Assembly (NCBI GenBank): GCA_017745075.1
Contig: JAGIAD010000002.1
Location: 186,001 to 250,000, forward strand
Source: Sphingobacteriaceae bacterium
GTDB lineage: Bacteria > Bacteroidota > Bacteroidia > Sphingobacteriales > Sphingobacteriaceae
Direction: 5' to 3'
Length of the DNA stretch: 64,000 bases
Shown here: in pieces, positions 12,030-26,794 of the stretch
Layout of the letters: each line of letters opens with the position of its first letter
How positions within the stretch are numbered: position 1 is the first letter of the stretch
Translations under genes and position numbers: made by a program
The notes under the pieces: model-generated
The model's input: only the letters and a program-made list of their open reading frames with translations
Databases searched by the model: none
Told to the model about the DNA's origin: nothing

Positions 12030-12860
12030 ATGAAACAGCTCACTATCATAAAAATTGGTGGAAATGTAATTGATAATTCAGAAAACCTGCATCAGTTTTT
12101 ATTGGATTTTACGGCTTTGCCCGGAGATAAAATTTTGGTTCATGGTGGAGGTAAAATTGCAACCGAGTTGAGCGAGTCGTTAGGCATTGAGGCCAAAATG
12201 ATTGAGGGCAGACGGATTACTGATATCGAAACCTTACGGATCGTGACGATGGTTTATGCTGGCTTAATCAATAAGAACATGGTAGCACAATTACAGGCAA
12301 AAGGCAGCAATGCCATTGGTTTGAGCGGTGCAGACGGAAATGTGATCAAAGCAACCAAAAGACCGGTAAAAGCTGTAACCTACGGTAATGAGCCAGGGCC
12401 CTTAGCCGGTTCAGTAATCGATTATGGTTATGTGGGCGATTTGGATGAAAACGCTGTGTCATCAGGTACTTTAGATAGTTTGTTGAAAGCTGGCCTGGTT
12501 CCGGTATTATGTGCCATTACACATGATGGAAATTCGCAGTTACTTAATACCAACGCTGATACCATTGCTTCTTCTGTTGCCGTGGCCATGTCATCTTTAT
12601 ATGAAACACGTTTGGTATATTGCTTTGAGAAAAAAGGTGTACTAAAGGATGTTAATGACGATGCTTCAGTTGTGAGAGAAATTAAAGCAAATGAATTTGA
12701 AGGTTTAAAAGCAGATGGAACGGTACAGGGAGGAATGATTCCCAAACTGCACAATGCTTTCGAAGCGATTAAAAAAGGTGTTTCTGCCGTTTATATCGGT
12801 AAAGCAGATGAACTGGCCGAACTTGCTGACGGCACTTTTGGAACAAAAATGCTGAAGTAA
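12030..12860 (+). CDS. argB: N-acylglutamate kinase
   Basis: This 276-residue amino-acid kinase phosphorylates N-acylglutamate at the gamma carboxyl. The N-terminal TIIKIGGNVIDN carries the GGN phosphate loop, KILVHGGGKIATEL is the second glycine-rich loop (about residues 35-48), and NADTIASSVAVAM near residue 175 and the GGMIPKLHNAFEAI block near residue 235 bind nucleotide and substrate. The protein lacks the N-terminal helix of arginine-inhibited kinases, so feedback by arginine may act elsewhere; that is inference from length. It lies 81 bp after argF'. Confidence 0.95.
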   Translation: MKQLTIIKIGGNVIDNSENLHQFLLDFTALPGDKILVHGGGKIATELSESLGIEAKMIEGRRITDIETLRIVTMVYAGLINKNMVAQLQAKGSNAIGLSGADGNVIKATKRPVKAVTYGNEPGPLAGSVIDYGYVGDLDENAVSSGTLDSLLKAGLVPVLCAITHDGNSQLLNTNADTIASSVAVAMSSLYETRLVYCFEKKGVLKDVNDDASVVREIKANEFEGLKADGTVQGGMIPKLHNAFEAIKKGVSAVYIGKADELAELADGTFGTKMLK

Positions 12861-16773: not shown

Positions 16774-18027
16774 ATGAAAGTTTCAGTAATAGCCAACTCA
16801 TTAATTGGCTCAGAAATTATAAAAATTGGTAACGAAGTTAACGAGATGAAGCGCAAAGGCGCATCGATTGCTAACCTTACTATTGGCGATTTCGATTCGA
16901 ATATTTACCCGATACCGGCTGAATTAAAGGCCGGAATTGTGGAAGCCTATAATGCCAATCAAACCAATTATCCGCCTGCTGATGGTGTTTTGCCATTACG
17001 CGAAACGGTTTCTGAATTATTAAAAGACAGATTTGGATTAGAATACAACACCAATAGTATTTTGGTTTCAGGTGGCTCACGCCCACTGATTTATGCTACT
17101 TACCTGGCCTTGATCGATCCTGGCGATACCGTAGTTTTCCCTGCTCCATCCTGGAACAACAATCACTATTCTCATTTAACTTCAGCTAAAACCATTGCTG
17201 TAGAAACTGATGCTGAGCATAATTTTATGCCAACAGCCGCGCAATTGAAACCACATTTAAAAGGCGCAACTTTACTGGCTTTATGTTCGCCATTAAATCC
17301 AACCGGAACGATGTTCGATGCAGATTCGCTGGCCGAAATCTGTGATGCTGTTTTAGAAGAAAATGCTTCACGCGGGGCAGATGAAAAACCATTGTACATG
17401 ATGTACGATCAGATTTATTCGCTTTTAACTTTTGGTAAGGTGCACGTAAATCCGGTTTCTTTAAGGCCAGAGATGAGGCCATTTACCATTTTTGTAGATG
17501 GCAGTTCGAAATGCCTGGCTGCAACCGGTGTGCGTGTGGGTTGGGGTTTTGGTCCAGAAGATATCATTAACAGAATGAAAGCTCTGGTAGGCCATATGGG
17601 GGCCTGGGCTCCAAAAGCCGAGCAGGTAGCCATGTCTAAATACTTTAACGATAAGCCACAGGTTGATGCATTCTTAACCGGCTTTAAGGCGCAGGTACAG
17701 GATAGCTTAAATGCGCTTTACAATGGTTTTAACGAATTAAAAGCAGAAGGTTTTAATGTTGATGCGGTAGAGCCAATGGGAGCCATTTACCTGACCATTA
17801 AAATCGATTATATTGGAAAGAAAACAGAAGATGGCCAGGTTTTAAAAGACAGTGCAGATGTAAATTTTTACCTGATCAAAGAAGCAGGTGCCGCTTTGGT
17901 CCCTTTCTCTGCCTTTGGAAATGAAGACAGTATGCCGTGGTTTAGGGCATCAGTTGGTGCCTGCACTTTACAGGACATTAAAGATATGTTACCGAGAATT
18001 AAAACAGCTTTAAGTAAGTTGAAATAA
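16774..18027 (+). CDS. Class I/II pyridoxal-phosphate aminotransferase
   Basis: This 417-residue fold-type I aminotransferase is AspC-like. SGGSRPLIYATYLAL binds the PLP phosphate; PLNPTG near residue 170, DQIYS near residue 211 and the PLP lysine in SSKCLAATGVRVGW near residue 248 are in order. It probably uses aspartate or another common amino acid, but the exact substrates cannot be read from sequence. As last gene of the arginine operon, 1 bp after argH, it may supply aspartate for ArgG or glutamate for ArgD; that is inference. A clear terminator follows at 18044-18080. Confidence 0.88.
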   Translation: MKVSVIANSLIGSEIIKIGNEVNEMKRKGASIANLTIGDFDSNIYPIPAELKAGIVEAYNANQTNYPPADGVLPLRETVSELLKDRFGLEYNTNSILVSGGSRPLIYATYLALIDPGDTVVFPAPSWNNNHYSHLTSAKTIAVETDAEHNFMPTAAQLKPHLKGATLLALCSPLNPTGTMFDADSLAEICDAVLEENASRGADEKPLYMMYDQIYSLLTFGKVHVNPVSLRPEMRPFTIFVDGSSKCLAATGVRVGWGFGPEDIINRMKALVGHMGAWAPKAEQVAMSKYFNDKPQVDAFLTGFKAQVQDSLNALYNGFNELKAEGFNVDAVEPMGAIYLTIKIDYIGKKTEDGQVLKDSADVNFYLIKEAGAALVPFSAFGNEDSMPWFRASVGACTLQDIKDMLPRIKTALSKLK

Positions 18028-18265: not shown

Positions 18266-19690
18266 CTAATCTTCCCTGCTTCCATCATCAGCCATCCTCA
18301 CCATTTTAGGTTCGAATTTAGCCACCACATCAACCAGTTCTGTTTGTGCAGCCATTACTTTATGGATGTCTTTATAGGCCATTGGTGCTTCATCTAAACC
18401 AGCTCCAATTAACGTAACATTGTGATCCTTTAAAATGGCTTTCATATCCGATTTAGTAATTGATTGAAAAGCTTTCGAACGGCTCATTTGACGTCCTGCG
18501 CCATGCGATGCCGAGTTGATTGCACTTGTCTCACCTTTACCCCTCACTAAAAACCCCGGTGCAGTCATGCTTCCCGGTATAATCCCCATCACACCTTTGC
18601 CAGCAGGTGTAGCGCCTTTTCGGTGCACTATTACTTCTTCACCATCAAGGATTTCTTTCCAGGCAAAATTATGATGGTTTTCTACTTTGGCCAAAACTTT
18701 TGCCCCGATTGCTTTAGTCAGCCTTTTATGGATCACCTCGTGACAAGCAGAAGCATAATCGCCGGCAAGGTTCATCGCGATCCAATATTCTTGCCCTTCG
18801 GCCGTGTTCATATCCAAATAAGCCAGGTTTACAGCCTCTTTAGGCAATTTACAGATATCCTTAGCCAGTTTGGTATAATAACCCGCAATGGTAGCACCTA
18901 AACCGCGCGAACCGGAATGGGTTAATAAAGCTACATAACGACCTTTATCAATATTTAAAATCTCATCACGTTCTGCAAAATCGATAATTCCCCATTCTAC
19001 AAAGTGGTTACCACCGCCTGATGTACCTAATTGTGCCCAGGCTTTTCCATGTAAGTTTTTAAGAAAAGTAGTTGAGTTAAAAGCTTCGTTATCCAATACT
19101 TCGTGTTCGGCTCTTTCCAATCCCCTAAACTCTCTACCTGCTCCGAATTTAGTAAAAGCAATCAATTCGCGTTTGTACATGGCATCTTTCCCAAAATAAT
19201 GTTTTTCGGGGATATCGAAAATACTTAAAGCCATCCGGCAACCGATATCTACGCCTACGCCGTAAGGTATAATGGCATTTCTGGTTGCTAATACACCTCC
19301 GATCGGTAAACCATAACCTTGATGGGCGTCGGGCATTAAAGCCCCCGCTGCCGATACCGGTAGTTTCATGGCAATATCCATTTGGTTTCGCGCGCCTTCT
19401 TCAATGTAATCAGCGCCAAATACCGCGTAGGGCTTTGCGTGGCTTACCAGTTCAATGGTTTCATCTTTTGGTGCATTGGCTGCTTCAATCATAGCTGTAG
19501 CCAGTGGATTTAAAACCGGATCATCCAAAAAACTTTCCGGGTAATCTTTTACTTTTTTAAATAAGGCCAGCAATTCTTTTTTTTCGGTACCCGTAAAATT
19601 TTCTTTCAGAATATCTAAAGCTAAACCTACTGTTTTTCCTTCGGTATAACCTATCTCGATCAGGTTGTTACCTGTTATGTTGTTGTTCAT
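18266..19690 (-). CDS. rtcB: RNA 3'-terminal-phosphate / 5'-hydroxyl ligase RtcB
   Basis: RtcB joins RNA 3'-phosphate (or cyclic phosphate) ends to 5'-OH ends with GTP and Mn2+, repairing cleaved tRNAs and other RNAs. The 474-residue form has the metal cysteine in GVGVDIGCRMAL (Cys151), GGGNHFVEW near residue 226, HSGSRGLG near 258, PGSMTAPGFLVRG near 372 and the guanylate-accepting histidine in SASHGAGRQ near 396. The frame runs upstream to 19750, but that extension would overlap the next gene and adds no conserved sequence, so I chose the ATG at 19690, 13 bp after rlaP. It is the last gene of the RNA repair cluster, and no archease gene is adjacent. Confidence 0.95.
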   Translation of the reverse strand: MNNNITGNNLIEIGYTEGKTVGLALDILKENFTGTEKKELLALFKKVKDYPESFLDDPVLNPLATAMIEAANAPKDETIELVSHAKPYAVFGADYIEEGARNQMDIAMKLPVSAAGALMPDAHQGYGLPIGGVLATRNAIIPYGVGVDIGCRMALSIFDIPEKHYFGKDAMYKRELIAFTKFGAGREFRGLERAEHEVLDNEAFNSTTFLKNLHGKAWAQLGTSGGGNHFVEWGIIDFAERDEILNIDKGRYVALLTHSGSRGLGATIAGYYTKLAKDICKLPKEAVNLAYLDMNTAEGQEYWIAMNLAGDYASACHEVIHKRLTKAIGAKVLAKVENHHNFAWKEILDGEEVIVHRKGATPAGKGVMGIIPGSMTAPGFLVRGKGETSAINSASHGAGRQMSRSKAFQSITKSDMKAILKDHNVTLIGAGLDEAPMAYKDIHKVMAAQTELVDVVAKFEPKMVRMADDGSRED

Positions 19691-19703
19691 TTTTATCGTT
19701 TTT

Positions 19704-20765
19704 TTAATCTGCATAAAGCTCTGTTCGCATCTCAACAAGTAAAGATTCAACTAAAGCTGTATCTGGCTTGTCCATGAGTTTGCTTTTGGTTGTTTCTTGT
19801 TCAATTTGTTCCATTAGAGTCTCTGCCATTTTTAATACGTCGTCGTAGTCAAGTTCTCCTCTTTTAATCATGAGTAACTCATCCCGATTTTGTCGTTTTA
19901 CATTTAATTTTCCATCCCGTACAATCTCAAGTGCCACTTGTAATAACCTGATGGTGTGCATCATGTTTTTCGAATCATAATCCTTACCATGATTCTTATT
20001 TAAACTGTATCGATCCTCGTTTCTTTTTTCTACCCATTCCCAATATTCACTATACTCTTTGCAGTAAGAAGAATAACTATCCTTGTTGAAGAATAAATAA
20101 GCAATTCCCTTTTCTCCAGGGGGTATGGCAGATACTGAAACTTCATTGGCATTTGTTTTATTTGCTATGCCTTTATAGGGGATGTTTATTTCATTGTTGT
20201 AAAATAAAGCATAAAGATCTTTGGTGTGCGGAATTTTTGATAATCCACAGTTTTCCTGTAAGATATTCCTTTTTTTTAGCCATGTTTTAACTTTAACTAC
20301 CGAATAATTCTCTGTTATATAACAAAAATCAAGCACCGTTTTTCGAGACTTTGGCATTGGATTTAAAATTTTTTTATTTAAACCTTTTGCCTTTCTGATC
20401 TGGGTTAAAGCATATCCGCCAAATGTATCTTTACACAATTTGGATAAGAACATCGTAATGTTTAATTTCTCCATTATCGGATGCTTATATAAAATGCAGT
20501 CTTCAGGAGTTGCTAAAATTTCAACAATATTCGGATTATTCTTGATTAACAATTCTATAAAGCGTCCAATTTCATAATAAACCTCATCATTACTCTCATT
20601 GCTGATTTGTGGGATATACTTTAAGCCAAAGAACATGCTTTTAGGCATGTAATAAATACCCTTTATATCTGTATCAGATTCAGGAGTATTTAAGCCATAA
20701 GCTTTACTGCCACTTAAACATTCGAATAACAAGAGATTTTTATCTTTTAGATCTTTAATTGTCAT
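19704..20765 (-). CDS. RlaP-type nucleotidyltransferase (pol-beta superfamily), second copy
   Basis: This 353-residue protein starts with a compact pol-beta nucleotidyltransferase signature: CLSGSKAYGLNTPESDTDIKG (residues 17-37), with the GS loop and the SDTD metal-binding acidic pair. Helical regions follow. This matches the family called RlaP (RNA ligase-associated pol-beta, PF10127, earlier YcgL), described from conserved neighbourhood with RNA repair ligases. It is expected to add nucleotides to RNA ends, but its chemistry is not established. Its start overlaps the end of the upstream paralogue by 11 bp, and rtcB starts 13 bp after its stop, so the three are one translational unit. Confidence 0.85.
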   Translation of the reverse strand: MTIKDLKDKNLLLFECLSGSKAYGLNTPESDTDIKGIYYMPKSMFFGLKYIPQISNESNDEVYYEIGRFIELLIKNNPNIVEILATPEDCILYKHPIMEKLNITMFLSKLCKDTFGGYALTQIRKAKGLNKKILNPMPKSRKTVLDFCYITENYSVVKVKTWLKKRNILQENCGLSKIPHTKDLYALFYNNEINIPYKGIANKTNANEVSVSAIPPGEKGIAYLFFNKDSYSSYCKEYSEYWEWVEKRNEDRYSLNKNHGKDYDSKNMMHTIRLLQVALEIVRDGKLNVKRQNRDELLMIKRGELDYDDVLKMAETLMEQIEQETTKSKLMDKPDTALVESLLVEMRTELYAD

Positions 20766-21516
20766 AACTCTTTATAGTTTTTCTAAAGAAAATATCGAGG
20801 GCTTCCCCGCTAAAACTTTCTTTTGTCAAATCTTTAGCTTCATCTCTACATCTTTCAAATTCATGATCGATATATTCGCTTAATTGAGGGACTATTTTTA
20901 CCAGAAATCCTTCATCAGACGTTGATTTAAGCAAAATAAGTTCGCTAACAATCTGCTGTAAATTTCGGGGCATTAAGGTAATTAATGGTCCTATTGTCAT
21001 GGGCGCAATAGTGTTTTTTTCTAAGCACCATTTTGCTGAAAGTAATGACCTAAGCACATAAAAAAGCTTTTTTATTTTGATTTCACCTTCATTTGTACCA
21101 GTTTCTAAAGCACCAAGCGCGATACCCAGGTAATGATTAACGTTTGTTTTTCTATAAAAATATTGCTGGCATAATTTCCACAAGTCCTCTTTGAAATTAT
21201 TATGCTCCATATAAATTATTGGTGACTGTAGCCATTCAAACGGAGTTGTATTTGATTTTCTGATCAGTTTGAGCGCTTTCCTTATATCCCAGCCATTGAT
21301 ATCAAGTTCATTATTTATTGGGAAATCAAGATGATCTGGGCTATCAGAAACCGATAAATAGTCATCCAAAGGGCGTGTATAAATAAATCTTACATCATAA
21401 TCGCTATCTGGTGACGGGAATTCCCAGCCTCTACTTCCAGACTCACAGGCAAATAATATTTTGATGTTGTGCTTGCGCTCTATTTCGCCAAGTTTCCTTA
21501 TTATCTCGGTTTTCAT
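20755..21516 (-). CDS. RlaP-type nucleotidyltransferase (pol-beta superfamily), first copy
   Basis: This 253-residue protein has the pol-beta motif FACESGSRGWEFPSPDSDYD (residues 22-41) and then VRFIY, giving the GSRxW loop and the SDYD acidic pair needed for two-metal catalysis; the pattern is that of RlaP/PF10127. A later conserved block KIKKLFYVLRSLLSAKW near residue 146 is helical. It is shorter and only distantly similar to the second copy, so the two are unlikely to be a recent duplication. It lies directly downstream of the tRNA-like RNA array, whose last hairpin ends 15 bp before its start codon. Confidence 0.87.
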   Translation of the reverse strand: MKTEIIRKLGEIERKHNIKILFACESGSRGWEFPSPDSDYDVRFIYTRPLDDYLSVSDSPDHLDFPINNELDINGWDIRKALKLIRKSNTTPFEWLQSPIIYMEHNNFKEDLWKLCQQYFYRKTNVNHYLGIALGALETGTNEGEIKIKKLFYVLRSLLSAKWCLEKNTIAPMTIGPLITLMPRNLQQIVSELILLKSTSDEGFLVKIVPQLSEYIDHEFERCRDEAKDLTKESFSGEALDIFFRKTIKSYDN

Positions 21517-21531
21517 TTTTCTCTAATTAAT

Positions 21532-21563
21532 CCCCGGCAGGCAACATTCACCTCGCCGAGGGG
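21532..21563 (-). promoter_or_regulatory. Leader hairpin before the first rlaP gene
   Basis: On the minus strand CCCCUCGGC pairs with GCCGGGG, with two bulged bases, giving a GC-rich hairpin in an AT-rich spacer. The next bases are AUUAAUUAGAG, not a U-run, so this is not a standard terminator. It may mark the end of the processed RNA array or shield the mRNA 5' end of rlaP-rlaP-rtcB. Confidence 0.5.
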
Positions 21564-21587
21564 TTTCTAAATTTAGTTTTAATTAAT

Positions 21588-21650
21588 GAGGCTACAAGTG
21601 CAAAATGTATCTAACTTTTTGGACGAAGTAACATTTAGCAACGGCACTCA
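21588..21650 (-). ncRNA. Y RNA-like unit 1 (degenerate, core element only)
   Basis: This unit is read from 21650 downward. It keeps the core GCCGUUGCUAAAUGUUAC and then UUCG (the complement of CGAAGTAAC at 21624-21632) shared by all six units. No T-arm or D-arm is recognisable after it, so it is either a decayed unit or the trailing half of a longer RNA. It is closest to the rlaP genes. Confidence 0.4.
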
Positions 21651-21664
21651 TTTTTTGAGAGAGC

Positions 21665-21764
21665 GAAAATTTTTAAGAGCAATACTGGCAAGTGTGTATT
21701 TACTAGCAGAATTCGAACCTGCACTATATTCAACCAATCGAAGTAACACTTGCGCAACGGCATC
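21665..21764 (-). ncRNA. Y RNA-like unit 2 (T-arm present, D-arm lost)
   Basis: The core GCCGUUGCGCAAGUGUUAC, then UUCG (complement 21739-21747), is followed by a good tRNA T-arm, GCAGG-UUCGAAU-UCUGC (21706-21722). After it, AAUAC and GUAUU can pair as an acceptor-like hairpin. No D-arm with GG is seen. The order of parts is the same as in units 5 and 6. Confidence 0.5.
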
Positions 21765-21778
21765 TTAACTTTTTAATG

Positions 21779-21908
21779 AACAGAAGCAAAAAGCAACAAA
21801 AGTCTACGGGGCATGTCGTTGCCGGAGTCGAACCGGATAATCTTGCTGGCTTTACAACTTCATTATTCCTCCCCTCAGTTGTGACGAAGTAACTCTTGTT
21901 TACGGCAT
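21779..21908 (-). ncRNA. Y RNA-like unit 3 (T-arm present, altered rest)
   Basis: The core GCCGUAAACAAGAGUUAC, then UUCG (complement 21885-21893), is followed by an ACAACU / AGUUGU hairpin, then a T-arm CCGG-UUCGACU-CCGG (21822-21836). GCAAC and GUUGC then close a longer acceptor-like hairpin. The D-arm is not recognisable. Confidence 0.5.
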
Positions 21909-21909
21909 T

Positions 21910-22004
21910 CTGTTTTTATGACTTAAACTATTCTACGTGGGTAGAAGCTGGACTTGAATCAACATTCTGGTCTTGAATCGAAGTAACTTTTATCTACGGC
22001 ACTT
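21910..22004 (-). ncRNA. Y RNA-like unit 4 (compact, permuted tRNA layout)
   Basis: The core GCCGUAGAUAAAAGUUAC, then UUCG (complement 21979-21987), is followed by a weakened T-arm with loop UUCAAGU (21947-21963). Next is a perfect 6-bp acceptor hairpin UUCUAC-CCAC-GUAGAA (21931-21946), then a D-arm-like GUUU/AAAC stem-loop (21912-21928). The order T-arm, closed acceptor, D-arm is retained in only about 95 nt. Confidence 0.6.
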
Positions 22005-22021
22005 ATTTGTATTTTAATTAA

Positions 22022-22150
22022 GCAAGGTTAAAGGCAAAAAGAGACTATTTTCCTGCTCTACCAGCTGAGCTACCCATTTACATGGGGCAGGGCTCGAACC
22101 TGCGACACGGGCATTAAGAGTGCGAAGTAACTCTTCTTTACGACACTTGC
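22022..22150 (-). ncRNA. Y RNA-like unit 5, permuted tRNA mimic (well formed)
   Basis: This 129-nt unit is read from 22150 to 22022. Ends GCAAG and CUUGC pair, followed by more stem (GUAAAG with CUUUAAC, then AAGAG with CUCUU). The core GUUACUUCG is at 22123-22131. Then come a T-arm GCAGG-UUCGAGC-CCUGC (22087-22103), a closed acceptor stem CCCAU-GUAA-AUGGG (22073-22086) capped by a GNRA-type loop, and a textbook D-arm GCUC-AGCUGGUA-GAGC (22055-22070). In a true tRNA the D-arm precedes the T-arm, so this is a circular permutation, as in bacterial Y RNAs. It lies next to a Ro homologue. Confidence 0.82.
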
Positions 22151-22177
22151 TTGTTTTCTATTTTTTTCTATAATTAG

Positions 22178-22305
22178 GCAAGGTTAAAGGCAAAAGAGAC
22201 TGTTTTCCTGCTCTAACCATTGAGCTATTCTGTTTAAAGAAGTAGGACTCGAACCTACAACCAGGGCGTCCTGAATGCGAAGTAACTCTTTTTAACGACA
22301 CTTGC
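22178..22305 (-). ncRNA. Y RNA-like unit 6, permuted tRNA mimic (well formed)
   Basis: This 128-nt unit is read from 22305 to 22178. The end stem GCAAG/CUUGC continues, after a 5'-strand UGUC bulge, with GUUAAA/UUUAAC and AAGAG/CUCUU (3'-strand bulge UUGCC). The core GUUACUUCG is at 22278-22286. T-arm GUAGG-UUCGAGU-CCUAC is at 22242-22258, acceptor hairpin UUCU/AGAA at 22228-22241, and D-arm GCUC-AAUGGUUA-GAGC at 22210-22225. Compared with unit 5, arm sequences differ but pairing is kept. It is the unit nearest the Ro gene, 53 nt after that gene's stop codon. Confidence 0.82.
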
Positions 22306-22326
22306 TTTTTTATAAATGTTTTTTAA

Positions 22327-22354
22327 TATCCCACAGCCATTTTACTGTGGGATA
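22327..22354 (-). promoter_or_regulatory. Strong hairpin between the Ro gene and the RNA array
   Basis: A 10-bp perfect stem (TATCCCACAG / CTGTGGGATA) with an 8-nt loop begins 3 bp after the Ro-gene stop on the minus strand. The downstream minus-strand bases are A-rich rather than U-rich, so it is a weak intrinsic terminator. It could be a processing or mRNA-stabilising hairpin separating coding from non-coding parts of one transcript. Confidence 0.6.
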
Positions 22355-22357
22355 GGT

Positions 22358-23875
22358 TTATATTTCGATCTTACTTATTTTTTCAAGCGCAGAAACTGCA
22401 TCTTCCATTCCAGAAAGTATATCGAAAATTTTATCAGACCAACCGGCCAACAAATACACATCATTTTGTCTAACATCTACCGGTTGAGTACTGTAGCCAG
22501 CTAAATCAAACAAATACAGTTTGGCATTTGGTGCGATTTTTTTATACTTAGACCACGAATTTGCGAAAGTGCTGTTGATATTATTGTTATTCCACATTTG
22601 CGTATCTGTAAATATCATTACTTTGTCAGTAACCTTTCTTTGCCTTATTAAGTCATCGATTACCAGATGTCCATTTGTAGCGTAGCCAACCTCACCTTCA
22701 CGTCTGTAATATTCCATTACATTAGCTAAAACATTTTGTTTCGGCATATTTATTACTTTATACCTGTCTCCAAACATACCAGTGGTTACATTTTTGCATT
22801 GCGACTGAAGTAACATAGCAAGCATTAAACCTATATCGTATAACAATACAGTGCTTCTAGCTGAAACTGGTTTTTGCATTGATCCGGAAACATCGCAGGC
22901 AATTACAATTGAGGTATCAAATCCAAAACCTTTTATGTTCTTTGCGCTACACATTACAGCGTTTTCCAAAGCATCTAATATTGCTGATGTAAAGCTCGAT
23001 TTAATGGATTTTAACTCTCTGTAGGCAGACAAAAATCTGAACGGAAGTTGTCTCGAATTTAAAACTGCTTTTTCATTAGCAAGGTAATCGCAAACTAGCT
23101 CAATGTGCTTAGCCGAAACATTAGCCTCTAAAATATTACGCAGGTTTCTTAGCATAGCCATGTAGCCGATCTTTTTGCTTTCGATCATCTCCTCCCATTT
23201 TCTGGTTACAGCTAATGCTCTGGCAGTTTCATCTGCAAATCTGTTTTTACCCAAAGCAGAAAGTTCAGTTTCCCATGTGTATGGCGTATCCAGGCTATCA
23301 GATGCTATCTTGTTAAAAATAGCTTGCTGAGCAGCATTTTTAGCTTTAGGGTGTACCAGAAATAAAGCATCCTTTAGTTTTACCGCTGCATTTCTATTGT
23401 ATTTAGCAAATTGATACTCATCAAAATTGTTAAAAGCTCCTATCAAACCTTTTTGTATTTGTTTTGAAAGCTTATTCAATTTTTTAATTTCAGTTCGCTT
23501 GTTGGCAATTTGATAGTAAGCTAACATTTCAGTGATCTCATCTGCACGTAAAACAACTCTGTTAACAGTTTTACTTACAATAGAGTTACCCGATGTCTTT
23601 TTTGCCAGCTCTACCGATAAAACCATTGGTATAGACCTTAAATTCATTTCAGTTCTGGCATAAATAGCCAATCTGGCGATAAATTCAGGATTACATTTTT
23701 CAATTAAACCTTTGATTCTTTCTAATCTGGTATCTCCAGCTTCATAAAACGAATCGTTCAATCCCGTAGTAACAACTGCAGTATATAGTTCCATTTCAGG
23801 ACTCATCACATATGCTTTTGCACCCTCATGATTTTTTATTGCCTGTGTGTTTTTGTTAAAGAAATTGAATTTCAT
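22358..23875 (-). CDS. Ro60/Rsr homologue (TROVE domain plus von Willebrand A domain)
   Basis: This 505-residue protein has an N-terminal helical-repeat TROVE domain (about residues 10-310; YTAVVTTGLNDSFYEAGDTR and IARLAIYARTEMNLRSIPM are typical) and a C-terminal vWA domain with the MIDAS motif DVSGSM at about 328-333 and MIFTDTQMW near 420. Ro binds Y RNAs on its outer surface and misfolded or damaged RNA ends in its ring, and in bacteria works with exonucleases such as PNPase. Here it heads a minus-strand cluster with Y RNA-like genes, RlaP and RtcB, opposite a WYL regulator, the counterpart of the rsr-yrl-rtcBA locus of enterobacteria. Confidence 0.93.
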   Translation of the reverse strand: MKFNFFNKNTQAIKNHEGAKAYVMSPEMELYTAVVTTGLNDSFYEAGDTRLERIKGLIEKCNPEFIARLAIYARTEMNLRSIPMVLSVELAKKTSGNSIVSKTVNRVVLRADEITEMLAYYQIANKRTEIKKLNKLSKQIQKGLIGAFNNFDEYQFAKYNRNAAVKLKDALFLVHPKAKNAAQQAIFNKIASDSLDTPYTWETELSALGKNRFADETARALAVTRKWEEMIESKKIGYMAMLRNLRNILEANVSAKHIELVCDYLANEKAVLNSRQLPFRFLSAYRELKSIKSSFTSAILDALENAVMCSAKNIKGFGFDTSIVIACDVSGSMQKPVSARSTVLLYDIGLMLAMLLQSQCKNVTTGMFGDRYKVINMPKQNVLANVMEYYRREGEVGYATNGHLVIDDLIRQRKVTDKVMIFTDTQMWNNNNINSTFANSWSKYKKIAPNAKLYLFDLAGYSTQPVDVRQNDVYLLAGWSDKIFDILSGMEDAVSALEKISKIEI

Positions 23876-23914
23876 AATTGTTGAATTAAGTGTTTAATCT
23901 TTGTTTTACATGTG

Positions 23915-23944
23915 CAAATTTCTTTGCCGTTCTGACATTACAAA
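23915..23944 (-). promoter_or_regulatory. Candidate promoter of the Ro/RNA repair operon
   Basis: On the minus strand TTTG (23941-23944) is followed after 18 bp by GAAATTTG (23915-23922), one mismatch from the Bacteroidota -7 box TAnnTTTG. It lies about 40 bp before the Ro start codon. The proximal dyad at 23958-23978 ends 14 bp upstream of the -33 element, a usual place for an activator. Confidence 0.45.
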
Positions 23945-23957
23945 GATGCCATCACCA

Positions 23958-23978
23958 CTGCGCGGCTGATTTGCGTAG
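23958..23978. promoter_or_regulatory. Dyad operator-like element, proximal copy
   Basis: CTGCGC and GCGTAG, separated by 9 bp, form an imperfect dyad. An identical layout with the same half-sites is repeated at 24070-24090, and AGAAAT lies just downstream of both copies. It sits in the divergent region between the Ro gene and the WYL regulator and is a likely binding site of that regulator. Confidence 0.6.
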
Positions 23979-24069
23979 TAAGAAATATTTTGTAATTATA
24001 TGTTTAATTAATTGATATTCAGCATGATAAATTTTATTTTTTATTAAAAATAATTCTTTTAGCTGTTAA

Positions 24070-24090
24070 CTGCGCAATTGTATTGCGTAG
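24070..24090. promoter_or_regulatory. Dyad operator-like element, distal copy
   Basis: The second copy of CTGCGC-N9-GCGTAG lies 112 bp from the first and 74 bp before the WYL gene start. Both half-sites are identical to the first copy while the 9-bp centre is largely different, which is the pattern expected of a protein-binding site rather than a random duplication. Confidence 0.6.
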
Positions 24091-24163
24091 ATTAGAAATG
24101 CTTTCATATATTTAGCTTAAAGAAATCACCAGATTTTTGGCATAAACTTAAAATCACGCTAAA

Positions 24164-25192
24164 ATGGCTGTAAATAAATTGGCGCTCATCCGTTACAAAA
24201 CCATCGACGATTGTTTGAGAAACCGTTTCCGAAAATGGACTTTAGATGATCTTATCGAAAAAGTATCAGAAACACTTTATGAGCTGGAAGGCATTACCAC
24301 AGGTGTAAGCAAGCGTACCGTTCAGGCCGATATCCAACTGATGCGTAGTGATAAACTGGGCTACAATGCTCCGATCGTAGTAAAAGATAAACGCTTTTAT
24401 GCTTATGGCGATCCAAATTTCAGTATCACCAAAGCGCCGATCAATAATGCGGATGTAGATAAAATGAAAGAAATTGTTGGCGTGCTGAAACAGTTTAATG
24501 CCTTTAATTATTTCGACGAAATGAGCGATATGATTGCCCGTCTGGAAAATAACCTCTACAAATCTACCAAACAGAGCGGTAATAATATCCAGCTGGAAAG
24601 CAATAAACTGGTTAAGGGTTTGGAATGCATTCCACCTTTATATCAGGCCGTTTTAAATAAACGGTCACTGCTGATCGAATATAAATCGTTCAAAGCACAG
24701 CAATCGCAACAGGCGATTTATTATCCATACCTGTTAAAAGAGTACAGGAACCGCTGGTTTCTGATATGTAAGGCGAAAAAACGGCCTGGGATATTAAATT
24801 TAGCTTTAGATCGTATTGTCGAATTTCAGGAACTGCCCAATGAAGAATTTGTTGCTTACCAAGGGGTAGATTTCGACCGCTATTACGATGATTTAATCGG
24901 CGTAACCAAGAGCGAGCGCGACCGTGCCCAAAAAGTTATCCTCGAGTTTACCAATGATCATGCTCCTTATGTATTAACCAAACCTTTGCATTCGTCGCAA
25001 ATAGTATTGGCTAAAAATGATAAAACGACCACTTTCAGAATCGATGTGGTATTAAACTACGAACTGGAGCGGGAGATTTTGGGTTTTGGCGAATGTGTTA
25101 AAGTGCTTTCGCCAAGGTTTTTGATTGCTAAAATTAAGCGACGTCTAGAACAGACTTACAGACAATATGAAATAACAGAAGTAAAACAATAA
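24164..25192 (+). CDS. WYL-domain transcriptional regulator of the RNA repair locus
   Basis: This 342-residue protein has an N-terminal winged-helix-like region (about residues 1-75; TLDDLIEKVSETLYEL and TGVSKRTVQADIQLMRS fit a DNA-binding helix) and a WYL domain (about 155-225) whose YYPYLLKEYRNRWFLICKAK and LALDRIVEF are the conserved WYL and arginine blocks. A C-terminal WCX-type extension follows (about 235-335). WYL domains are thought to sense nucleic-acid ligands, and such regulators often control RNA repair or defence genes. It is transcribed divergently from the Ro gene, and two identical dyads lie between them, so it probably controls the locus and itself. Confidence 0.87.
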   Translation: MAVNKLALIRYKTIDDCLRNRFRKWTLDDLIEKVSETLYELEGITTGVSKRTVQADIQLMRSDKLGYNAPIVVKDKRFYAYGDPNFSITKAPINNADVDKMKEIVGVLKQFNAFNYFDEMSDMIARLENNLYKSTKQSGNNIQLESNKLVKGLECIPPLYQAVLNKRSLLIEYKSFKAQQSQQAIYYPYLLKEYRNRWFLICKAKKRPGILNLALDRIVEFQELPNEEFVAYQGVDFDRYYDDLIGVTKSERDRAQKVILEFTNDHAPYVLTKPLHSSQIVLAKNDKTTTFRIDVVLNYELEREILGFGECVKVLSPRFLIAKIKRRLEQTYRQYEITEVKQ

Positions 25193-25273: not shown

Positions 25274-26794
25274 ATGAGCACAACCAAATATATCCTGTCT
25301 ATCCTTATGGCTTGTTCTTTAGGCGTATTTGCGCAGCAAGCTACTCCTCAATGGCGGCCAGATTATCATTTTACTGCACCAACCAATTGGTTAAATGATC
25401 CTAACGGTTTAATTTACCTCAATGGTGAATACCATTTATATTATCAGTATAATCCAGTCGAAAATAAATGGGGACATATGAGCTGGGGGCACGCCAAAAG
25501 TAAAGATCTGGTAAATTGGGAACATCTTCCGGTTGCCATACCCGAGAAGATTACTAAGGATACCACCACCATGATTTTCTCTGGTTCGGCAGTTTTGGAT
25601 AAACAAAATGTAAGTGGTTTAGGAAAAGGCAAAGCACCCATTTTGGCATTTTATACGGCTGATTTACCTAAACAGCATAATGAATCGCAGTATATGGCTT
25701 ATAGCAACGATGGTGGTTTAACATTTACCGATTATGGTAAAAATCCAATCATCGACTTAAACAAAAAAGATTTCCGCGATCCGAATGTGTGGTGGCACGA
25801 AGCTTCTAAACAATGGATCATGACGGTTGCAATGGTTGATGAGCATCAGGTACGGTTTTACGGTTCAAAAGACCTGAAAGACTGGTCTATGCTCAGCGAT
25901 TTTGGTAAGCGAGGTAACCAGGGTAGTGGTTGGGAATGCCCTTTCATCATTCCGTTGGCGGTTGATGGAGATAAGAACAACACCAAATGGGTACTGATGG
26001 TTTCGCTCTTTGGGCCGAAAGGACCAACCATTCAGTATTTTGTAGGTGATTTTGACGGCAAAACTTTTAAAAATGATAACGATGCACAGTTAACTTTGCT
26101 GGTTGATGATGGCGATTCGTTTTATGCGGCCATTCCATGGAACAATGCGCCAAATGATAAACGCATTCTTTTGGGCTGGTTGCAGCCGGGCGGTAGAGAG
26201 ACCTTCCCATGGAAAGGGCAGATGTCCATCCCGAGAGACCTGGCATTAAAAACCACCCCTGAAGGTATAAGGTTGTTTCAACAACCAAGTTCGGTTATTG
26301 CAGGCAACCTTAAAAAACTGTCCAAAAACCGGCTAATATCCAAGCAGAATCTGGTTATTAGCGGCGGTGAATTGAAACTGGGTGAAATTACCAATACAAA
26401 CTGGATTGAAGCAGAGTTTGATCTGCGTGATGCTAAAAATGCGGGCTTTAAGCTGACTCAGTTAAAAGACGGGCAAGGGAAAGTGATTAAAGAAATCGAG
26501 GTGGTTTATCGAGCTGATAAAAACGAACTGTATGTAGATTGCTCGCGCTCAGAAAAAGGGATCAAAAACGATAAAAATATTATTCAAAACGCTAAAATGA
26601 ATCCCGTTGGCGGTAAAGTGAAAATTCAGATCCTGATTGATAAATCATCACTTGAAGTTTTTGGCAATGGTGGTGAAAAGGTGATTTCGACCATGATTTT
26701 CCCGGACGAAAAAGCAACGGGAATAACGGTGTTTGCTAAAGATGGAAGCAGCGTATTAAGCCGTTTAAAGATCTGGGATTTGAGTAGGAAATAG
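25274..26794 (+). CDS. Glycoside hydrolase family 32 fructan hydrolase
   Basis: This 506-residue exported enzyme has a signal peptide ending near AQQA (residue 20). The GH32 triad is intact: nucleophile Asp41 in WLNDPNGL, transition-state Asp in FRDPN (168-170) and acid/base Glu222 in GWECPF. A C-terminal beta-sandwich (from about residue 350; SSLEVFGNGG is typical) completes the family fold. GH32 members release fructose from levan, inulin or sucrose; exo-levanase or invertase cannot be separated here. It has no SusCD partner in this window and seems to be a single gene. Confidence 0.93.
   Translation: MSTTKYILSILMACSLGVFAQQATPQWRPDYHFTAPTNWLNDPNGLIYLNGEYHLYYQYNPVENKWGHMSWGHAKSKDLVNWEHLPVAIPEKITKDTTTMIFSGSAVLDKQNVSGLGKGKAPILAFYTADLPKQHNESQYMAYSNDGGLTFTDYGKNPIIDLNKKDFRDPNVWWHEASKQWIMTVAMVDEHQVRFYGSKDLKDWSMLSDFGKRGNQGSGWECPFIIPLAVDGDKNNTKWVLMVSLFGPKGPTIQYFVGDFDGKTFKNDNDAQLTLLVDDGDSFYAAIPWNNAPNDKRILLGWLQPGGRETFPWKGQMSIPRDLALKTTPEGIRLFQQPSSVIAGNLKKLSKNRLISKQNLVISGGELKLGEITNTNWIEAEFDLRDAKNAGFKLTQLKDGQGKVIKEIEVVYRADKNELYVDCSRSEKGIKNDKNIIQNAKMNPVGGKVKIQILIDKSSLEVFGNGGEKVISTMIFPDEKATGITVFAKDGSSVLSRLKIWDLSRK

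What the first reader, a model, noticed from the sequence alone, without database searches (positions are those of the whole stretch)
18266..25192. WYL-controlled RNA repair locus joining Ro60, a tRNA-like RNA array, two RlaP proteins and RtcB
Seen: TROVE/vWA protein, six-unit non-coding array, two pol-beta nucleotidyltransferases and rtcB all on the minus strand in that order, opposite a WYL regulator. Known: Ro binds Y RNAs; RtcB seals 3'-P/5'-OH RNA; RlaP was named for its link to RNA ligases; enterobacteria have rsr-yrl-rtcBA under RtcR. Inferred: this locus is a Bacteroidota version in which WYL replaces RtcR, nucleotidyltransferases replace the RtcA cyclase, and the Y RNA is amplified to an array. 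It could repair toxin-cleaved tRNA.
Basis: partly seen in the sequence, partly recalled or inferred. Interest (0 to 1): 0.93.

Follow-up and report, generated by a model that had tools for sequence, protein, structure and literature searches.

The report
Ro60 operon with swappable Y RNAs
Beside the gene for a Ro60-type RNA-binding protein, this Pedobacter relative carries six predicted small RNAs that share one stem design but bear different tops, some shaped like tRNA, in a gene cluster with a predicted RNA-sealing enzyme; they would act as exchangeable adaptors that likely let Ro60 work on damaged tRNA and ribosomal RNA.

Summary
Minus strand, in order: a TROVE/vWA (Ro60) gene, an 841-nt spacer with six units, two RlaP genes, rtcB; a WYL regulator faces them. 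The units are not one amplified tRNA-like RNA but different Y-RNA-like RNAs with a common, covarying stem and different inserts: two permuted tRNA modules, a truncated one, a conserved T-loop module, a T-arm module, a plain hairpin. Relatives hold up to 11 units; in 11 of 80 named loci one unit copies 23S rRNA helices 69-71 (33/33 nt of the host's own 23S in one species). Among the 80, WYL and an RNA-end-repair enzyme go together (34 of 35 WYL loci, 0 of 45 without WYL), and the enzyme changes between RtcB and Rnl1/PNKP several times on the Ro60 tree. RlaP is near only 4 of 80, so 'RlaP replaces RtcA' is no general rule, though RtcA and RtcR have no match in this genome. Mechanism, inferred: Ro60 uses exchangeable Y-RNA adaptors to triage damaged tRNA and rRNA; decoys are the main rival. 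Transcription and binding are untested. New variant of a known kind.

The parts
24164..25192 (+). WYL-WCX transcription regulator, divergent from the other genes
   Evidence: Pfam WYL 1.9e-10, WCX 1.5e-9; PADLOC WYL 3.8e-22; homologue within the fetched flank in 35 of 80 relatives
22358..23875 (-). Ro60-type TROVE + vWA protein, 505 aa
   Evidence: PF05731 2.4e-31, vWA_Ro60 2e-8; PDB chains 9l5y and 9kop, named TROVE domain-containing protein, E 6.4e-24 over residues 13-492
22328..22353 (-). perfect inverted repeat (ATCCCACAG/CTGTGGGAT) just after the TROVE stop, before unit 1
   Evidence: read directly; kept in L007 and L009
22178..22305 (-). Y RNA unit 1: common stem + permuted tRNA-like insert (T-arm, closed acceptor, D-arm)
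   Evidence: YrlA E 5.8e-6
22020..22152 (-). Y RNA unit 2: common stem + permuted tRNA-like insert
   Evidence: YrlA E 9.3e-7
21915..22008 (-). Y RNA unit 3: tRNA-like, 3' half lost (about 46 nt) compared with P. soli and P. frigidisoli
   Evidence: alignment; not accepted by the unit parser
21779..21914 (-). Y RNA unit 4: common stem + 'module C' (GGGGAGGAATA...CCGGTTCGACTCCGG...GCCCC)
   Evidence: module in 61 units, one per locus in 61 of 81 loci; 21 of 33 consensus pairs with two-sided changes; no second full copy in own genome
21673..21768 (-). Y RNA unit 5: common stem + T-arm-only insert
21585..21652 (-). Y RNA unit 6: plain hairpin Y RNA (outer stem, internal loop, inner stem)
21532..21563 (-). 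G+C-rich inverted repeat between array and RlaP1, no T-run
   Evidence: read directly; similar in L007 and L009
20755..21516 (-). RlaP nucleotidyltransferase 1 (253 aa); GSRGW...DSDYD, a pol-beta-type motif by eye
   Evidence: PF10127 2.1e-69
19704..20765 (-). RlaP nucleotidyltransferase 2 (353 aa); GSKAY...ESDTD by eye
   Evidence: PF10127 2.7e-22; these two are the only RlaP matches found in the genome
18266..19690 (-). RtcB RNA ligase (474 aa), the only RtcB found in the genome
   Evidence: PF01139 1.3e-78

Best explanation
This is a Ro60/RtcB gene cluster facing a WYL gene, whose spacer carries six different units (five whole, one truncated) that share a covarying stem design and are predicted to be Y RNAs that bind Ro60 and serve it as exchangeable adaptors, likely steering damaged tRNA and rRNA to repair or decay. 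Shown here: the genes, the six units, the shared stem (outer helix, bulged U, a G-C and a covarying Y-R pair, internal loop, inner helix, UACUUCG), the different inserts, recurrence of the same design in 79 of 80 relatives, a 23S helix 69-71 copy in some relatives, and the tight WYL-ligase association. Inferred step 1: WYL senses a product of RNA damage and controls the genes as one operon. Inferred step 2: each Y RNA binds the Ro60 ring through the shared stem, and its insert (tRNA elbow, T-arm, module C, or 23S mimic) engages a protein that recognises that surface, such as PNPase, as published for YrlA in RYPER. Inferred step 3: the RNP presents broken RNA either to RtcB (with RlaP predicted to restore lost nucleotides) or to PNPase.
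For: Fair control: of 536 candidate units, 323 reach stem score 30 when the 3' side is sought with their own 5' strands, 24 with strands dealt from other units. In 468 accepted units the outer stem is 94% and the inner 90% paired, against 76% and 78% with dealt partners (the units had been accepted for pairing, which lifts the observed values). RNAalifold, without a given structure: tRNA-type units 18 of 24 pairs with two-sided changes, with 7-bp acceptor, 5-bp T-stem and 4-bp D-stem; module C 21 of 33; 23S type 12 of 64. Rfam YrlA fits tRNA-type units. Motif in sense and downstream of TROVE only, in the 80 named loci. Similar module order from Pedobacter to Flavobacterium, by eye. 23S mimic: 33/33 nt of own 23S in L042, 11 of 80 loci, the whole unit in at least 16 of 246 family genomes. 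WYL and ligase: 34 of 35 against 0 of 45. Ligase labels need 7-8 changes on the Ro60 tree. PNPase is present in the genome. A review passage (PMC8394870) says that YrlA's basal stem holds Rsr and its tRNA-like part binds PNPase.
Against: No transcription, Ro60-binding or partner-binding data. Single-sequence folding is weak (z -0.1 to -1.7). At the acceptance score of 26 dealt strands still gave 100 matches against 473. The inner stem was not in the RNAalifold consensus of the tRNA-type units, though it was in the other two. Rfam YrlA scores (35.8-42.2 bits) are below the curated 69. The array is seen in 45 of 46 loci without a detected ligase, so repair is not its only use. RlaP is near only 4 of 80 loci. 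The WYL-ligase count is not corrected for kinship: the 45 loci without WYL are two clades of the Ro60 tree (Chryseobacterium group, Sphingobacterium). No match to the Bacteroidota promoter pattern in front of the genes. No binding partner of the 23S mimic or module C is known to me.
Confidence: 0.45

Rival explanations
1. Decoys: the inserts are uncleavable baits that would sequester ribotoxins or phage nucleases. Each keeps a recognition surface (elbow, helix 69-71) but lacks parts that are often cut: the anticodon arm is replaced by the Ro stem, the acceptor end is closed, and the 23S mimic lacks the UUCCU of 23S.
For: Consensus of 32 aligned tRNA-type units has a closed acceptor and no anticodon arm; UUCCU absent in 11 of 11 mimics; the array is kept where ligases are not found, longest in the Chryseobacterium group; SUKH-like ORFs between units in some loci (that SUKH proteins are often immunity proteins is recalled); a passage of PMC7790460 proposes the YrlA tRNA-like domain as competitive inhibitor of the anticodon nuclease.
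Against: Lack of an anticodon arm is plain YrlA topology; loss of UUCCU may just follow from shortening helix 71; arrays are short (2-3 accepted units) in Sphingobacterium, which also lacks ligases; no toxin with these specificities was looked for in these hosts; the MazF helix-70 site is recalled only (one search found no paper).
Confidence: 0.3
2. Ordinary rsr-yrl-rtcB relative: several Y RNAs that act alike as gates and tethers for Ro60; insert differences are drift.
For: Same gene kinds as the enterobacterial operon; YrlA match; unit 3 is decayed in this strain without loss of the others.
Against: Insert classes are conserved across families with compensatory changes and in similar order (by eye); a 23S copy kept in 11 loci is not expected from drift.
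Confidence: 0.15
3. The inserts are substrates or sponges for RNA-modifying enzymes (T-loop for TrmA/TruB, helix 69-71 for RluD/RlmD-type enzymes; sites recalled), tuning tRNA and rRNA modification.
For: T-loop GTTC[GA]A in all 132 T+D units (largely by construction, since the class was defined by a T-arm pattern), and also in module C; YrlA is modified by DusA and TruB (PMC8394870 passage).
Against: Plain hairpin units have none of these sites; does not explain the link with ligases.
Confidence: 0.08

Closest known systems
Enterobacterial rsr-yrlBA-rtcBA operon with RtcR (Salmonella)
   Same: Ro60 homologue, tRNA-like Y RNA, RtcB and a divergent regulator in one locus (passages of PMC7790460)
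   Different: WYL instead of RtcR; no RtcA or RtcR match in the genome; six different units; two RlaP genes
YrlA (Rfam RF02553)
   Same: closed stem with T-arm, closed acceptor, D-arm in permuted order; fits at E 9.3e-7 and 5.8e-6
   Different: scores about half the curated cut-off; only model positions 24-84 fit in the window; units 4-6 give no YrlA match
RYPER (Rsr-Y RNA-PNPase)
   Same: proposed use of Y RNA as tether from Ro60 to an effector (PMC8394870 passage); PNPase present
   Different: several different effector modules; binding not tested
Bacterial Pnkp-Rnl-Hen1 repair systems
   Same: Rnl1 and PNKP genes stand where RtcB otherwise is, near the same Ro60/array, in 9 of 80 relatives; Hen1 N-terminal domain found in one of them, L081
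   Different: not in this window; of the published complex (PMC4411300) I saw only the start of the abstract in a listing, which does not name Ro60

Membership tests
Ro60/Rsr | TROVE domain plus vWA domain | tested here: met
   PF05731 2.4e-31 and PF25045 2e-8, both over their cut-offs
Ro60/Rsr | NCBIfam Rsr equivalog NF041674 cut-off (900 bits) | tested here: not met
   34.1 bits; a TROVE-vWA protein outside the Rsr equivalog
Ro60/Rsr | binds Y RNA | not testable with these tools
   needs pull-down
YrlA (RF02553) | permuted tRNA module: T-arm, closed acceptor, D-arm | tested here: met
   units 1 and 2 and relatives; not units 4-6
YrlA (RF02553) | Rfam gathering score 69 bits | tested here: not met
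   38.5 and 35.8 bits in the window, 42.2 in L042; not filed as RF02553
Bacterial Y RNA | encoded beside Ro60, ends paired in a stem with bulge and internal loop | tested here: met
Bacterial Y RNA | transcribed, bound by Ro60 or PNPase | not testable with these tools
   no RNA or protein data
Rtc operon (RtcR-RtcBA) | RtcB | tested here: met
Rtc operon (RtcR-RtcBA) | RtcA cyclase | tested here: not met
   no PF01137 match in the genome
Rtc operon (RtcR-RtcBA) | RtcR regulator | tested here: not met
   no PF06956 match in the genome; WYL instead

The most novel reading that the evidence does not exclude
Ro60 arrays are an evolving, genetically encoded toolkit of RNA mimics: one Ro60-binding stem displays look-alikes of tRNA elbows, of 23S helices 69-71 and of further RNA surfaces not yet identified, as uncleavable decoys against ribotoxins or as partner-specific adaptors. 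The repair enzyme behind it is exchangeable (RtcB or Rnl1/PNKP) under WYL control, and in one enzyme-less clade, the Chryseobacterium group, the arrays are longest, carry the 23S mimic and often have spare tRNA gene sets nearby.
Probability: 0.3. Interest if true: 0.9.

Novelty: new variant of a known kind. Interest (0 to 1): 0.72.

Why it matters
Bacterial Y RNAs are described mainly as tRNA mimics that tether Ro60 to PNPase. Here one Ro60 is paired with a set of different Y RNAs on a common stem, and some relatives carry a piece of 23S rRNA as the displayed module. That makes the question 'what is the Y RNA head for?' testable: swap heads on one stem and see which partners, RNAs or toxins change. 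The relatives were fetched by their Ro60, so Ro60 is constant by construction; but that the array stays beside it while the ligase is exchanged (RtcB or Rnl1/PNKP) or missing suggests that Ro60 and its RNAs, not the ligase, are the core of these loci.

Tried and rejected
Simple tandem amplification: rejected, since inserts differ; module C and the 23S type occur once per locus, other types one to several times. Genuine tRNA genes: rejected (ARAGORN none; the Rfam tRNA hit straddles stem and T-arm). Copies of particular isoacceptors: seven inserts of L042 and the six of the window were compared with ARAGORN predictions from fetched stretches of the two genomes (73 for C. arachidis, 53 own; 64 and 41 after merging identical letters; overlapping stretches are counted twice); best scores are shared between different tRNAs and acceptor stems differ, so only a generic elbow mimic is claimed. 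Parent RNA for module C: in the own genome only itself, a 23-base match to unit 2 (E 0.05) and a 16-base match at a tRNA-Leu (E 0.6); no Rfam match at it. The 23S likeness beyond helices 69-71: not significant (39 of 100 shuffles as good). Bacteroidota promoter pattern (recalled): 3 hits in the window, 3.7 expected, one inside rtcB and none in front of the operon. Single-sequence folding energies: uninformative. PADLOC: only the WYL protein matches. My unit parser mis-set the 3' end of unit 1 and missed unit 3 in the window; a few of its 473 units (e.g. L009 15292, L028 13708, L046 15663) look like chance hits and were left in the counts; the 5' motif was part of the search pattern, so its conservation is partly by construction. 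Five of the 473, with inserts over 235 nt, were dropped before the counts.
Full report
Where it is. The window is G000:C22:186001-250000. Its Ro60 protein is 96% identical to that of Pedobacter soli, so the host is very likely a Pedobacter. Ro60 of this kind is patchy: 18 of 119 genomes of the genus have a match.

Genes. Minus strand, in order: TROVE+vWA_Ro60 (22358-23875), array spacer (21517-22357), RlaP1 (20755-21516), RlaP2 (19704-20765), RtcB (18266-19690); WYL/WCX regulator divergent (24164-25192). The flanking genes, an aminotransferase (16774-18027) and a GH32 enzyme (25274-26794), look unrelated. In the whole genome RtcB and RlaP match only here, RtcA and RtcR have no match and PNPase is present elsewhere. 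The Ro60 protein falls far below the NCBIfam Rsr equivalog cut-off (34.1 against 900 bits) but aligns with two solved TROVE chains (9l5y, 9kop, E 6.4e-24).

The six units. Each whole unit has an outer stem, then RUGYCGU, an inner stem, UACUUCG, a variable insert, the inner stem's partner, a T-rich loop, and the outer stem's partner. The strict motif has six hits in the spacer and one in the rest of the window, inside an accB-like ORF. Inserts: units 1 and 2, T-arm, closed acceptor hairpin and D-arm, i.e. a tRNA in permuted order without anticodon arm; unit 3, the same type with the 3' half deleted compared with P. soli and P. frigidisoli; unit 4, module C; unit 5, T-arm only; unit 6, plain hairpin. 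Rfam YrlA fits units 2 and 1 at E 9.3e-7 and 5.8e-6 over model positions 24-84, below its cut-off.

Relatives. One scan of named genomes with a 28-sequence Ro60 alignment gave 488 confirmed stretches, of which the best 80 were kept (L007-L086); the sample is therefore anchored on close Ro60 relatives. In these 80, the strict motif has 218 hits in 78 loci, all sense and within 5 kb after TROVE, and none in any control region. A looser parser found 536 candidates in 81 loci (80 plus the window) and 473 accepted units in 80 of the 81; the locus without any, L051, ends 204 bases after the TROVE match. At the acceptance score of 26, dealt strands gave 100 matches against 473, so single units near the threshold are unsure; at score 30 it is 24 against 323. 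Of 468 units with inserts up to 235 nt, the outer stem is 94% and the inner stem 90% paired, against 76% and 78% when partners are dealt out anew; since units were accepted for pairing, this comparison flatters the observed side and the control is the fairer one. Every stem position shows at least two Watson-Crick pair types; the top position of the inner stem is often unpaired.

Structure by independent folding. RNAalifold on 32 tRNA-type units gives the outer stem with a single unpaired base, a G-C pair and a Y-R pair that switches U-A/C-G (17 and 12 sequences, 3 U-G), then a 5-bp T-stem, 7-bp closed acceptor and 4-bp D-stem; 18 of 24 pairs have two-sided changes; the inner stem is not in this consensus. 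Module C: 21 of 33 pairs (37 sequences, inner stem included). 23S type: 12 of 64 (11 sequences, inner stem included). The MAFFT alignments used no structure. They hold 37 module-C, 11 23S-type and 32 tRNA-type units, so part of the 61 and 132 found. Energies of the single window units are not clearly better than shuffles (z -0.1 to -1.7).

Insert classes (468 units in the 81 loci, by pattern): T-arm plus D-arm 132 (74 loci), T-arm only 90 (56), module C 61 (61 loci, one each), hairpin 140 (70), 23S type 10 (an eleventh, L050, fell in 'other'), D-arm only 8, other 27. By eye the order is similar across genera, for example A-A-C-T-h in P. soli and A-C-h-h in several Flavobacterium before RtcB (A = T+D, C = module C, T = T-arm, h = hairpin). 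So the array is a set of different RNAs, not a plain repeat expansion. Accepted units per locus range from 2 to 11: 2-3 in the five Sphingobacterium loci, up to 11 in the Chryseobacterium group.

The 23S mimic. In Chryseobacterium arachidis (L042) the insert at 12634-12666 is identical over 33 of 33 bases to the strain's own 23S rRNA (E 4.4e-11), in the segment known as helices 69-71 (names recalled); in all, 11 of 80 loci hit this segment. Next to it the mimic has a short hairpin with a G[UC]GA loop where 23S has the longer helix 71. The rest of the insert is conserved among the 11 but not like 23S (39 of 100 shuffles as good). The whole unit matches in 16 of 246 genomes of the family; the other 167 genomes with a match reach only about E 1e-10, the level of the 33-base 23S segment. 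Only three candidates per genome were scored, and 23S copies compete for them, so 16 is a lower bound. The window itself has no such unit.

Gene context in the 80 loci (tblastn within the fetched flanks of up to 9 kb, so divergent or distant genes can be missed). WYL 35 (43-93% identical; some, as in L026, L034 and L067, several kb from TROVE); RtcB 25; Rnl1 9; PNKP 10 (the nine with Rnl1, plus L022, which has RtcB); RlaP1 3; RlaP2 4. Each of the 34 ligase loci has WYL; the 35th WYL locus, L037, has a contig that ends about 5 kb after TROVE; none of the 45 loci without WYL has a ligase (Fisher 8e-22, not corrected for kinship). In L086 the RtcB hit lies upstream of the WYL gene. Pfam confirms Rnl1 in L036, L079, L080 and L081, PNKP in L030, L036, L079 and L080, and a Hen1 N-terminal domain in L081; the rest rests on tblastn. 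On a Ro60 tree of 81 rows RtcB needs 8 changes, Rnl1 7 (15 of 500 shuffles as low) and 'no ligase' 3, one of which is the cut contig L037. The ligase is thus exchanged while array and WYL stay, and WYL and ligase are missing together in two clades, Sphingobacterium and the Chryseobacterium group.

Viral contigs. Of 32 IMG/VR contigs with a TROVE relative, 8 have strict-motif units near it, some before TROVE rather than after, and 2 of these (alike in layout) also RtcB. Whether these contigs are true phages was not checked.

Mechanism. Known, from passages read: in Salmonella rsr, Y RNAs and rtcBA share an operon often regulated by RtcR (PMC7790460), activated by tRNA fragments (PMC8394870); YrlA holds Rsr by its basal stem and PNPase by its tRNA-like part (PMC8394870); RlaP is predicted to restore lost nucleotides before ligation (PMC7824862); WYL domains are predicted ligand sensors coupled to transcription in defence loci (PMC4012209). 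From this I infer that the shared stem binds Ro60 and that each insert engages a partner that knows that surface. Adaptor is preferred over decoy because a tether role is published for YrlA and a set of conserved heads fits several partners; persistence of the array without a ligase fits PNPase-type partners encoded elsewhere. Decoy stays close: the heads lack the anticodon arm and open ends, and UUCCU is absent from 11 of 11 mimics, but these facts have plainer causes too. Neither is shown.

Novelty. Several Y RNAs per Ro60 and tRNA mimicry are known in kind (Chen 2014, recalled; not held). In ten searches of the held library neither the listings nor the passages I opened mention rRNA-mimicking Y RNAs or Bacteroidota Y RNA arrays; I did not open most of the listed papers, and two highly relevant ones, Chen 2014 and Burroughs and Aravind 2016, are not held, so novelty of the gene neighbourhoods is uncertain. 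Hence: new variant of a known kind.

Changes made on checking: the count of loci without a ligase is 46 (45 without WYL); the claim that arrays grow where ligases are lost was cut to the Chryseobacterium group; 16 of 246 is now a lower bound; 'one copy each' is limited to module C and the 23S type.

Noticed in passing
L143 (G142:C17:195800-198800); L024 4292-6290; L041, L045, L047, L051, L052, L054, L056, L075, L076, L086: Arrays of extra, partly odd tRNA genes near the Ro60 locus: 11 of 80 loci hold 5 or more tRNA genes, 10 of them without WYL or ligase (Fisher p 0.02, not corrected for kinship). In C. arachidis the array lies about 12-14 kb before TROVE and two tRNA-Leu in it lack the long variable arm.
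   Followed up: partly
L042 11069-11596 and 12869-13708: DUF6584 and SUKH-like (SMI1_KNR4, below cut-off) ORFs lie between Y units in this Chryseobacterium array; homologues lie in the fetched stretches of 18 and 15 of 80 loci.
   Followed up: partly
L042 12199-12310 and 12 other Chryseobacterium-group loci by eye: A further insert type with GAATAACAGTAAGGA...GTGCATGTCTGTC and no T-arm; origin unknown.
   Followed up: no
L095, L096, L098, L100, L102-L106: A second Pedobacter Ro60 type (about 55-60% identical) with an RtcB homologue before TROVE instead of after the array.
   Followed up: no
L201-L205, L209, L213, L215: IMG/VR contigs with Ro60 relatives and Y-type units; L209 has two units before and five after TROVE.
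   Followed up: partly
L037: Contig labelled Limnohabitans whose Ro60 sits among Flavobacterium on the tree, probably mis-binned; it has WYL and the 23S-type unit.
   Followed up: no
window 42829 (-): Single strict-motif hit inside an accB-like ORF, taken as chance.
   Followed up: yes
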